Source: Conexibacter woesei Iso977N (GTDB lineage: Bacteria > Actinomycetota > Thermoleophilia > Solirubrobacterales > Solirubrobacteraceae). From it: 64,000 bases of DNA. The position numbers and the translations under genes are program-made. The notes beneath the pieces are model-generated. The model was not told where the DNA came from and did not search any database. It saw nothing but the letters and a program-made list of their open reading frames with translations. The stretch spans positions 1 to 64,000 of the forward strand of contig NZ_AUKG01000005.1 of NCBI RefSeq assembly GCF_000424625.1. Reading direction: 5' to 3'. Below, in pieces: positions 55,663 through 58,671 of the stretch (position 1 is its first letter; every line of letters starts with the position of its first letter).

Positions 55663-56340
55663 TCAGCGCAGCGTCAGGCCGAGGGTCGCGAGCGCGGACT
55701 GGAGGTCCGGATCGTCGGCGCGCAGCTTCTGCGCGCGAGTGATGACGCGCTGCAGCGGAGCCGGCTCGAAGAGCGCCCAGTTGACGATGTCGTCGCCGAG
55801 GCGGGACGGGTATCTGAGGCCCGCGAAGCCCTGGTCGTAGACGTAGCGCGAGATCTCCTGGGTCAGCGCGCGCGGGGCGCGGGTGCGGAGGTCACCCGCG
55901 TCGAAGTCGTCGAGGCCGTAGTGCACGAGGCGCTTGGCCAGCGCGGTTCTCAGGTGCGCGATCGAATCCGAGTGCGCGACGTCGGCGAACCTCGCCTGCG
56001 CCACGCTCGCGACGCCGATGCAGCGGTTGGTGAGCCATCCGCTCGGCACCACGCCCGCGGGGATGGTCGGCGCGTCGCCCTCGCTCCCCGCGATCGCCGC
56101 CAGCTCGGCGACCACCGCGAGGTCCGGCCGGAACCGCGCAAGCGTCTCGACGAACGTGCCGAATCTCTGACCGCTCGCGTAGACCACGCGGTACAGCCCG
56201 AGCGGGTCGTCGTAGCGGTTGTCGAACGTCCCGTCCGGCCCCGCGAACTCCCACGGCGGCAGCGCCCACGCATCCGGCGGCCGGCCCAGCCGGTAGAGCA
56301 GCTCCGGTGCCCCGACCGCGCGCAGCTCCGGGACGCTCAC
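55663..56340 (-). CDS. RES-domain toxin (NAD+ phosphorylase/glycohydrolase family)
   Basis: 225 residues from a GTG that overlaps the antitoxin TGA (GTGA). The RES fold is visible as PELLYRLGRPPDAW, GTFDNRYDDPLGLYRVVYAS and GTFVETLARFRPDL. Candidate catalytic residues are R17, Y54 and E65; the Y-to-E spacing of 11 is the same as in mycobacterial MbcT. Enzymes of this family destroy NAD+ and stop growth until neutralised. It is longer than MbcT, with a C-terminal helical extension of about 60 residues. Confidence 0.88.
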   Translation of the reverse strand: MSVPELRAVGAPELLYRLGRPPDAWALPPWEFAGPDGTFDNRYDDPLGLYRVVYASGQRFGTFVETLARFRPDLAVVAELAAIAGSEGDAPTIPAGVVPSGWLTNRCIGVASVAQARFADVAHSDSIAHLRTALAKRLVHYGLDDFDAGDLRTRAPRALTQEISRYVYDQGFAGLRYPSRLGDDIVNWALFEPAPLQRVITRAQKLRADDPDLQSALATLGLTLR

Positions 56341-56741
56341 CCGCCAACCAGGAACGCCCGCTGCGCCGCCACGATCATCGGCCCCACCTCGTCGAGCGCA
56401 CCCTCGCGCAGCAACCGCGCCGGCGACCGGTCCTCCAACTGCGGGTTCAACCCCTGGAACCACGCCTGCGCGATCTCCGGCGAGTCCGCCGCGACGATCG
56501 GGATCGTGATCCGCAACGCGAACCGCAGCCGCTGCTGCGTCTCATCGCCCGGCGTCCGCTTCCCCTCAACCCACTCGTTCACCGCCCGCGTCTCCCCGAC
56601 TCCCGCGAGGTACGCGACCAACCGGGCCCCCAGCCCCTCCCGCAACTCCCCAACGACCTCCGGGAACGCCGCCCGCGTCGCACGAGCATGCGCATCAAGG
56701 TCCGGCCGACTGCGTTCGATTGTTGCCATGGTGATTGACAT
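56337..56741 (-). CDS. Xre/MbcA/ParS-type antitoxin
   Basis: 134 residues from the ATG at 56739-56741; ATG 56729 is also possible. An N-terminal helix-turn-helix-like part (ARLVAYLAGVGETRAVNEWV) precedes the MbcA/ParS/Xre toxin-binding domain, recognised by AQAWFQGLNPQLEDRSPARL. It neutralises the RES toxin by covering its active site and probably represses its own promoter, where CAATCAC repeats occur. It is upstream of the toxin and overlaps it, the usual antitoxin-toxin order. Confidence 0.88.
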   Translation of the reverse strand: MSITMATIERSRPDLDAHARATRAAFPEVVGELREGLGARLVAYLAGVGETRAVNEWVEGKRTPGDETQQRLRFALRITIPIVAADSPEIAQAWFQGLNPQLEDRSPARLLREGALDEVGPMIVAAQRAFLVGG

Positions 56742-56773
56742 GCTAGTACCACCGCCAATCACAGTCCAATCAC
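56731..56773. promoter_or_regulatory. Repeated operator half-sites at the RES-Xre promoter
   Basis: CAATCAC occurs at 56756-56762 and 56767-56773, 11 bp apart, and its inverse GTGATTG at 56731-56737. One-turn spacing on one face of the helix is typical of autoregulating antitoxins. Confidence 0.55.
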
Positions 56774-56798
56774 ACAACAGATCACAGAGCTACCACAC

Positions 56799-56817
56799 AC
56801 GACGATTCTCTCGTCGT
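56799..56817. promoter_or_regulatory. Palindrome between the divergent toxin-antitoxin units
   Basis: ACGACGA-TTCTC-TCGTCGT, a perfect 7-bp inverted repeat, lies between the Xre gene and the PIN-partner gene. It could be the operator of the rightward unit or a short hairpin. Confidence 0.45.
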
Positions 56818-56901
56818 TTGCCACGAAAGGCATGAGGCTTGTCGCCAGATGGCCTGCATCTGCCCACTCGCCACTGACGAGGCCGTACCGTTCGCTTGGC
56901 G

Positions 56902-57792
56902 ATGGCAGAACTCGTTCTCGATCTCCACGGAACACGGGCACGCGAAGGCGTCGACATCGACGCGTTCGAAGCGTTCCTCGTGCATTTCCGGTCGGCGCTG
57001 CGCGAGTTCGACAGAGCCAGCCAAGGGAAGATCGCACGGAAGAGCGGCCGGCCCGCAGCGCGCGACAACGCCGCTTCGGCGTTTCGCATGGTGGCGTTCA
57101 GGACCGGAAGCGGGATCGCGACCCTGGAACCCAGCCTCGCTGCCACGGAAGACGACGACCTGGCGCTCGACGCCGGCGAACCGCTGGCCGTCACGACACT
57201 CAGCCGGATGCTCGACGACATCGAGGCGGGCCGCAGGCTTGCCGGACCCGTTGTCGAAGCTCTCGGCAGCGCTCGTCGTGCTCTTGGGGAGGACGGCAGC
57301 TTCGGCGTCGAGCTGTCCAGGGGCGGCGCGCGCCCACGCGTGATGATCGACCGTGAACGCATCGAGCAGATGAGCCAGGCGACACCGGCCGGCCCCGAGG
57401 CGCCGTTGACGGTCACCGGCCGCCTGCACCTGATCGAGGCGGATCCGCCGAACCGACGGGTGCAGGTCCGCGGCCAGGACGGAACAGACTGGACCGGCAC
57501 CTATCCAGATCACCTTCACGATCTCGTCCTCGGACTGATCGAGCGAGTGGTCCGCGTGACCGGCATCGGGCGTCGCATGTCGCCCGCGACGGGCCGGCTG
57601 CAGATCGACGAGATCGATCCGATCGCGGAGCCGACGCAGGACTCGCTGTTCAGCATCGAGATCGTCCCGGCCGCGCATCTGCGGGAGGACCAGCACGTCG
57701 ACGGGCCTCAGGGACTCGCCGCCATGGCCGGCCGCTGGCCGACCGATGACGAGGAGGCCGCGCGTTTCCTCGAGACGATCCTCGGCGAGTAG
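56902..57792 (+). CDS. Large unknown partner (candidate antitoxin) of the PIN toxin
   Basis: 296 residues from the ATG at 56902; a TTG two codons earlier is an alternative. No known antitoxin DNA-binding domain (ribbon-helix-helix, AbrB, Phd, HTH) is visible. Residues about 1-45 form a helical start (MAELVLDLHGTRAREGVDID, then AFEAFLVHFRSAL), about 165-240 a beta-rich possibly OB-like part (VTGRLHLIEADPPNRRVQVR, RVVRVTGIGRRM), and 274-296 an acidic tail (MAGRWPTDDEEAARFLETIL) like those that wrap VapC toxins. Its stop directly abuts the ATG of the PIN gene, so they are translationally coupled. I cannot name a family. Confidence 0.7.
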   Translation: MAELVLDLHGTRAREGVDIDAFEAFLVHFRSALREFDRASQGKIARKSGRPAARDNAASAFRMVAFRTGSGIATLEPSLAATEDDDLALDAGEPLAVTTLSRMLDDIEAGRRLAGPVVEALGSARRALGEDGSFGVELSRGGARPRVMIDRERIEQMSQATPAGPEAPLTVTGRLHLIEADPPNRRVQVRGQDGTDWTGTYPDHLHDLVLGLIERVVRVTGIGRRMSPATGRLQIDEIDPIAEPTQDSLFSIEIVPAAHLREDQHVDGPQGLAAMAGRWPTDDEEAARFLETILGE

Positions 57793-58269
57793 ATGGGCGG
57801 CAACGAGGCGGCGGCGGCCGCCGAGAACATCCTCTGCGACACGTCGTTCGTCAGCGTCGTGCAGGTCAAGGGTCCGCTGGAAGGCTGGCCCGCCAAGACG
57901 CGCGAGCGTCTGACCGCGGCGATCCTCGGCATCAGCGTCATCACGCTCGCCGAGCTTCGTGACGGGCACATCTCCGCCGGTTGGGGCACAGCGCGGCGAG
58001 CCGATGCAGAGCAGCTGATGGCCGCGTACCTCTGGGTGCCGCTCGACCTCGCCGTGATCGACGAGTGCGCTCAGCTCCGCGCGTCCTGTCGTGCCAGCGG
58101 CGTCGCCGTCCCCGACAACGATCTCTGGATCGCCGCCACCGCGAACGTCCGCAGGTGGCCGTTGGTGTCATGCGACAGGCACTTCGACGTCATTCCGGGC
58201 GTCGATCACATCTACCTCGATCCTCCGCCGAAGCGTCACAGGACACCTCCGCATCGGCGCGACGGCTAG
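57793..58269 (+). CDS. PIN-domain (VapC-like) ribonuclease toxin
   Basis: 158 residues. The four acidic metal ligands of the PIN fold fit D16 (ILCDTSF), E54 (TLAELRDG), D110 (VPDNDLWIAA) and D128 (VSCDRHFD). NDLWIAATA is the diagnostic VapC helix. Such Mg2+-dependent endoribonucleases cut tRNA or rRNA. The C-terminal 17 residues are Pro/Arg-rich and atypical. Its start immediately follows the TAG of the partner gene. Confidence 0.9.
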   Translation: MGGNEAAAAAENILCDTSFVSVVQVKGPLEGWPAKTRERLTAAILGISVITLAELRDGHISAGWGTARRADAEQLMAAYLWVPLDLAVIDECAQLRASCRASGVAVPDNDLWIAATANVRRWPLVSCDRHFDVIPGVDHIYLDPPPKRHRTPPHRRDG

Positions 58270-58342: not shown

Positions 58343-58621
58343 GGCGGCGATGGCGGACGCTAGGTACAGCCACGAAGTGCCGCGGGGGTTCGATACCGAT
58401 AGGCAGGCCGGTGGCGGCGCCGCTGAGGAAGGTCGCGGCCAGGAGCGGTGGTGGCGCCGCGGCAGTGGAGGCGCGTGTGCCGAGAGGCGGCGATGGCGGA
58501 CGCTGTGCGCAGCCTCGAAGTGCCATGGGGGTTCGATACCGGTAGGCAGGGCGATGGCGGTGTCGCTGACGACGACCGCGGCCAGCGGCGGTGGTGGTGC
58601 CACGGCAGTGGAGGCGCGTGT
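58343..58621. repeat. Tandem direct repeat, two copies with a 143-bp period
   Basis: Copy 1 (58343-58478) and copy 2 (58486-58621) align without net gaps. Shared blocks include GGCGGCGATGGCGGACGCT, GAAGTGCC, GGGGGTTCGATACCG, TAGGCAGG and GCAGTGGAGGCGCGTGT. The strong core GGTTCGATACC recalls a tRNA T-arm, but no tRNA can be folded. A diverged duplication of an intergenic element is likely. Confidence 0.75.
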
Positions 58622-58639
58622 AGCGACGGCGGTTAACGA

Positions 58640-58671
58640 CGAACGGCCGGCGCAGAAGCGCCGGCCGTTCG
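58640..58671 (-). terminator. Terminator of the rplU-rpmA unit
   Basis: A perfect 14-bp stem, CGAACGGCCGGCGC with its complement, loops over AGAA and begins 19 bp after the rpmA stop. It is the strongest hairpin seen in the window. Confidence 0.85.

What the first reader, a model, noticed from the sequence alone, without database searches (positions are those of the whole stretch)
56902..58269. PIN toxin paired with a 296-residue partner of unknown family
VapB antitoxins are usually 70-100 residues with a small DNA-binding domain. This partner is three times larger, has no recognised DNA-binding fold, shows a beta-rich middle and an acidic tail that resembles toxin-wrapping segments, and is stop-to-start coupled to an intact PIN protein (D16, E54, D110, D128). 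It may be a new antitoxin class, or a sensor that couples PIN activity to another signal.
Basis: partly seen in the sequence, partly recalled or inferred. Interest (0 to 1): 0.7.

Follow-up and report, generated by a model that had tools for sequence, protein, structure and literature searches.

The report
PIN toxin with three-part OB-fold antitoxin
Next to an ordinary-looking bacterial RNA-cutting toxin gene sits an unusually large putative antitoxin that couples a toxin-gripping type of tail to a nucleic-acid-binding type of (OB) domain, which suggests, but does not show, that the toxin is released in response to a nucleic-acid signal.

Summary
In this Solirubrobacterales genome a 296-aa ORF abuts (TAG|ATG) a PIN-domain gene whose D16, E54, D110 and D128 are invariant in relatives. 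The partner has no credible Pfam, NCBIfam, PADLOC or PDB-sequence match, but it is a true gene family: 9 of 232 genomes of the order carry it, each with a PIN gene or a damaged PIN gene directly downstream, usually overlapping by 4 bp, under purifying selection. It has three parts: an N-domain of unresolved fold, a confident OB fold (residues 165-242; best matches SSB, PriB, RPA, IF-1), and an acidic tail. Tail-only proteins of 56-66 aa occupy the same position before other PIN genes, so the tail is the likely neutraliser and the rest an add-on. Profile comparison links the partner to distant large PIN partners (279-313 aa) in other actinobacterial families. The closest characterised precedent is M. 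tuberculosis VapB52, a large ssDNA-responsive VapB, but this partner lacks its HEXXH motif. Most likely this is a VapBC-type toxin-antitoxin variant whose antitoxin carries an OB domain. Neutralisation and ligand sensing are inferred; toxicity is untested. New variant of a known kind.

The parts
56902..57792 (+). Large putative antitoxin (partner), 296 aa
   Evidence: family of PIN-linked relatives; no credible Pfam/NCBIfam/PADLOC match
56902..57381 (+). N-domain of partner (residues 1-160), fold unresolved
   Evidence: AF2 pLDDT about 28-55; collinear with N-domains of L070/L077/L078 proteins; L077 and L078 N-domains match PADLOC candidates PDC-M32A and PDC-M63B, the window protein itself does not
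57394..57627 (+). OB-fold domain of partner (residues 165-242): strands 1-3, helix, strands 4-5
   Evidence: AF2 pLDDT about 77-91; Foldseek IF-1/RPA/SSB, E from 3e-3; VIA-align Z 8-9 to SSB, PriB, RPA
57670..57786 (+). Acidic toxin-binding-type tail of partner (residues 257-295), with conserved L, Q, PQGL, W, D positions
   Evidence: Conserved in all relatives; shared with tail-only small proteins in L039, L008/L066, L069 and L079
57793..58269 (+). PIN-domain (VapC-type) putative toxin, 158 aa
   Evidence: PF01850 E 1.8e-8; nearest solved relative 3dbo_B (VapC5 of M. tuberculosis), E 2.3e-13 with the family profile; acidic residues invariant
56796..56820 (.). Inverted repeat CACACGACGA-5 nt-TCGTCGTTTG in the divergent intergenic region; possible operator, unproven
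   Evidence: not compared with relatives

Best explanation
The two genes form a type II (VapBC-like) toxin-antitoxin module in which the antitoxin is unusually large and modular. Shown by sequence and prediction: an intact PIN nuclease domain, a tightly coupled upstream partner conserved as a pair, an OB fold in the partner's middle, and a partner tail shared with short tail-only partners of other PIN genes. Inferred: the acidic C-terminal tail wraps the PIN active-site face and keeps the RNase off (about 0.75). Inferred with less certainty: the OB domain, with the N-domain, binds a nucleic acid (ssDNA or RNA; about 0.55) and so acts as a sensor or localiser that loosens the tail and releases the toxin (about 0.3), in place of the small DNA-binding domain of a classical VapB.
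For: Strict linkage: every large partner found in the order is followed by PIN or a damaged PIN, as are L070 and L077 outside the order; junctions are 0, -4 or +11 nt. Purifying selection on both genes and on all three partner regions. Tail-only proteins upstream of PIN: L039 (56 aa) and L079 (66 aa, 4-bp overlap, hhalign 95% to the tail profile). OB fold. Homology to L070: hhalign score 54 against a maximum of 6.5 in 60 shuffles, collinear over 223-268 columns. Precedent: VapB52, a large VapB that responds to ssDNA (PMC13273310). Genes near relatives include an integrase-like ORF (L006, by reading) and a type III restriction-like protein (L018).
Against: No toxicity, binding or neutralisation data. 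AF2 of tail plus PIN did not place the tail (pLDDT below 50). The N-domain fold is unresolved. OB folds also mediate protein contacts. Two tail-only proteins (L008/L066 and L069) have no PIN next door, so the tail does not always mean a PIN partner. No transcription data.
Confidence: 0.68

Rival explanations
1. A plain VapBC module: the tail does all the work, and the N-domain plus OB only give dimerisation or operator binding (autoregulation), with no signal sensing.
For: Tail-only partners accompany other PIN genes. A palindrome lies upstream. OB domains can act as structural or protein-binding modules (general knowledge).
Against: The N-domain and OB are under purifying selection and kept over large divergence. 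No canonical operator-binding domain was found.
Confidence: 0.35
2. Not a toxin-antitoxin pair but a two-subunit nuclease: the partner recruits the PIN RNase to a nucleic-acid target through its OB domain (RNA processing or defence effector).
For: OB fold close to SSB/PriB/RPA; strict pairing; N-domains of distant relatives match candidate phage-defence models.
Against: The tail is shared with short tail-only proteins in the antitoxin position. Patchy distribution and decayed copies (G238, G035, G005) fit a dispensable mobile module.
Confidence: 0.15
3. A decaying or non-functional remnant pair.
For: Copies in other genomes are broken by frameshifts or truncated beside transposase-like ORFs.
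Against: The window copy is intact in both genes with all four acidic residues; close pairs elsewhere show purifying selection.
Confidence: 0.05

Closest known systems
VapBC type II toxin-antitoxin (VapBC5 of M. tuberculosis, PDB 3dbo; FitAB, PDB 2h1o/2bsq)
   Same: PIN toxin downstream of and coupled to its partner; PIN family profile matches VapC5 (E 2.3e-13) and FitB; acidic C-terminal tail on the partner
   Different: Partner about three times larger; no HTH, RHH, AbrB or Phd domain detected; OB fold in the middle
VapB52-VapC52 of M. tuberculosis (PMC13273310)
   Same: Large three-part antitoxin for a PIN toxin whose C-terminal domain covers the active site; the middle part of VapB52 responds to ssDNA
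   Different: VapB52 is 415 aa with an HEXXH peptidase and HTH; this partner has no HEXXH and has an OB fold instead; no sequence link was shown
PADLOC candidates PDC-M32A and PDC-M63B
   Same: N-domains of distant large partners L077 and L078 match them (E 6.4e-6 and 3.2e-6)
   Different: The window protein and its close relatives do not match; PDC-M63AB showed no detected defence activity in one native-host test (PMC12409345); the composition of these candidates was not examined

Membership tests
VapBC (PIN-based type II toxin-antitoxin) | PIN-domain protein with the conserved acidic residues | tested here: met
   PF01850 E 1.8e-8; D16, E54, D110, D128 invariant
VapBC (PIN-based type II toxin-antitoxin) | Partner gene immediately upstream, translationally coupled | tested here: met
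   Gap 0 in the window, -4 in the intact close relatives examined
VapBC (PIN-based type II toxin-antitoxin) | Small antitoxin (about 70-100 aa) with N-terminal DNA-binding domain (AbrB, RHH, Phd, HTH) | tested here: not met
   296 aa; no Pfam/NCBIfam match; predicted OB fold instead
VapBC (PIN-based type II toxin-antitoxin) | C-terminal toxin-binding tail | tested here: inconclusive
   Tail motif shared with tail-only PIN partners, but predicted docking had low confidence
VapBC (PIN-based type II toxin-antitoxin) | Toxin inhibits growth and the partner neutralises it | not testable with these tools
   Needs expression experiments
VapB52-type large antitoxin | HEXXH peptidase plus HTH middle domain | tested here: not met
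   No HEXXH in the partner or the relatives checked; no HTH match
OB-fold proteins | Topology strand-strand-strand-helix-strand-strand closing a small barrel | tested here: met
   AF2 pLDDT about 77-91 with that order; VIA-align Z 9.0 to S. coelicolor SSB, rmsd 2.9 over 78 residues. Predicted model only
PADLOC PDC-M32 / PDC-M63 | Match to the family models | tested here: not met
   No match for the window protein or its relatives in A3; only distant L077 and L078 match

The most novel reading that the evidence does not exclude
An uncharacterised class of nucleic-acid-sensing antitoxins: the OB domain binds ssDNA or RNA produced in stress or phage infection, which pulls the tail off the PIN RNase, making the pair a one-step sensor-effector switch used as defence by an actinobacterial family of modules.
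Probability: 0.25. Interest if true: 0.8.

Novelty: new variant of a known kind. Interest (0 to 1): 0.5.

Why it matters
It gives an unnamed family of large PIN partners a defined architecture (N-domain, OB, tail) and a testable idea of what the extra domains do. If the OB domain controls toxin release, it would be a second, peptidase-free route besides VapB52 by which a VapBC-type module could read a nucleic-acid signal, bearing on the open question of what activates chromosomal toxin-antitoxin systems.

Tried and rejected
1) Library searches with the partner (Pfam, NCBIfam, PADLOC, PHROGs, PDB sequences): nothing credible. 2) Plasmid, phage and viral-contig searches with the partner or its distant relatives: no match; this shows only absence at tblastn or degenerate-pattern sensitivity. 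3) Alignments of the fused partner-PIN read-through with relatives were misaligned by MAFFT and not used; the tail-PIN read-through model left the tail unplaced. 4) A chance ORF was rejected on conservation and pN/pS. 5) A VapB52-like peptidase was rejected (no HEXXH). 6) L077 alone gives no direct hhalign signal to the window family (score 4.7); it is linked through L078 and L070 and by its adjacent PIN. 7) Profile A10 does not recover the window partner in its own genome, so the wider kinship rests on profile-profile scores. 8) Phyla outside Actinomycetota could not be reached with the genome search; distribution there is unknown. 9) PADLOC models PDC-M63B and PDC-M32A found nothing in this genome or the control genomes.

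Full report
What is there. The window belongs to a 5.7-Mb genome whose relatives carrying this gene are Solirubrobacterales, class Thermoleophilia. At 56902-57792 (+) an ORF of 296 aa ends in TAG, and the next base begins the ATG of a 158-aa PIN-domain ORF, 57793-58269. PIN is recognised by Pfam (E 1.8e-8); the partner by nothing credible in Pfam, NCBIfam, PADLOC, PHROGs or PDB sequences.

The pair is conserved. Searching the order, 9 of 232 genomes in 6 of 54 genera have the partner. Intact copies in L002, L003, L004, L006 and L018 (36-40% identical to the window copy) are followed by the PIN gene with a 4-base overlap. The others are damaged: in L005 the PIN reading frame is shifted, in G238 both genes are broken into pieces, and in G035 only the end of the partner remains, beside ORFs that read like an IS21-type transposase pair, and PIN is frameshifted. 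In no case in the order was the partner found without PIN sequence. Close pairs show pN/pS of 0.12-0.22 (partner) and 0.10-0.14 (PIN); N-domain, OB and tail are each constrained. D16, E54, D110 and D128 of PIN are invariant among the five sequences aligned. The nearest solved relative is 3dbo_B, VapC5 of M. tuberculosis (E 2.3e-13 with the family profile; the name VapC5 is from general knowledge).

The partner has three parts. AlphaFold2 with eight sequences models residues 165-242 well (block means about 77-91) with the order strand-strand-strand-helix-strand-strand, and the rest poorly (overall pLDDT 50). Foldseek gives IF-1, RPA, SSB and lysyl-tRNA synthetase OB domains first (E from 3e-3), and VIA-align gives S. 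coelicolor SSB (Z 9.0, rmsd 2.9, 78 residues), PriB, RPA and AspRS OB domains. The middle is therefore very probably an OB fold. That OB folds commonly bind ssDNA or RNA is established knowledge; that this one does is inference. The fold of residues 1-160 is unresolved.

The tail. Residues 257-295 carry conserved L, Q, PQGL, W, D and (F/Y)L positions and the last 50 aa are acidic (net -8). The same tail occurs in short proteins: 56 aa directly before a related PIN in L039, 66 aa overlapping a PIN gene by 4 bp in L079 (hhalign 95% to the tail profile), and proteins of 85 and 73 aa in L008/L066 and L069, which have no PIN next door (their neighbours read like Fic, DUF488 and an HTH protein). Other relatives of this PIN are preceded by further short acidic proteins (L037, L043-L046) or by proteins that read like Phd/YefM antitoxins (L047, L053, L054, L056). 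Short tail-only proteins in the antitoxin position are the main argument that the tail is the neutralising part and the N-domain and OB are additions.

Wider family. The tail profile found L070, a 279-aa protein 11 bases before a PIN gene in another family of the class. hhalign aligns it collinearly with the window family over N-domain, OB and tail (E 1e-7; score 54 against a maximum of 6.5 in 60 shuffles and 4 for the reversed sequence). A profile including L070 found L077 (311 aa, overlapping a PIN gene by 4 bp) and L078 (313 aa, tail frame broken, no intact PIN) in other families of the phylum. L077-L078 and L070-L078 are similar by BLASTP (E 1e-16 and 2e-7), and the three together align with the window family at 96% probability. 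L077 alone does not, and the A10 profile does not recover the window partner in its own genome, so the kinship is distant. The N-domains of L077 and L078 match PADLOC candidate models PDC-M32A and PDC-M63B. PDC-M63AB was tested in one native host without detectable defence (PMC12409345).

Mechanism. The best reading is a VapBC-type module with a modular antitoxin: the tail neutralises, and the OB domain (with the N-domain) binds something, most simply a nucleic acid. VapB52 of M. tuberculosis is the precedent for a large VapB whose middle domain reads ssDNA by self-cleavage (PMC13273310), but the present partner has no HEXXH motif, so any release must work differently. The tail-PIN model did not place the tail, hence docking is not shown. 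A 2009 survey of type II systems lists AbrB, RHH, PHD, Xre and several COG families as PIN partners (PMC2701414); the passages read mention no OB-containing partner, though the supplementary data were not examined.

Verdict. The pair is a new variant of a known kind, with a clear architecture and a testable but unproven sensing role.

Noticed in passing
55663-56777 (-): RES-domain protein (PF08808 E 1.8e-11) with an upstream protein weakly matching the Xre/MbcA/ParS antitoxin C-terminus (E 0.013, below cutoff): a probable second toxin-antitoxin module, divergent from the PIN pair.
   Followed up: partly
58343-58655: Tandem array of a 143-base G+C-rich unit, about 2 copies, 80-85% matching, between the PIN gene and a gene that reads like rpmA.
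   Followed up: no
L066 1357-1671 and L069 1450-1671 (reverse strand, as printed): Tail-only proteins without an adjacent PIN, beside genes that read like Fic, DUF488 and an HTH protein; their toxin partner, if any, is unknown.
   Followed up: partly
L070 784-2048, L077 1375-2627, L078 1348-2289: Large PIN partners in other actinobacterial families; N-domains of L077 and L078 match phage-defence candidate models PDC-M32A and PDC-M63B.
   Followed up: partly
L037, L043-L046: Short acidic proteins of other types directly upstream of related PIN genes; those scanned have no Pfam match above cutoff: possible further minimal antitoxins.
   Followed up: no
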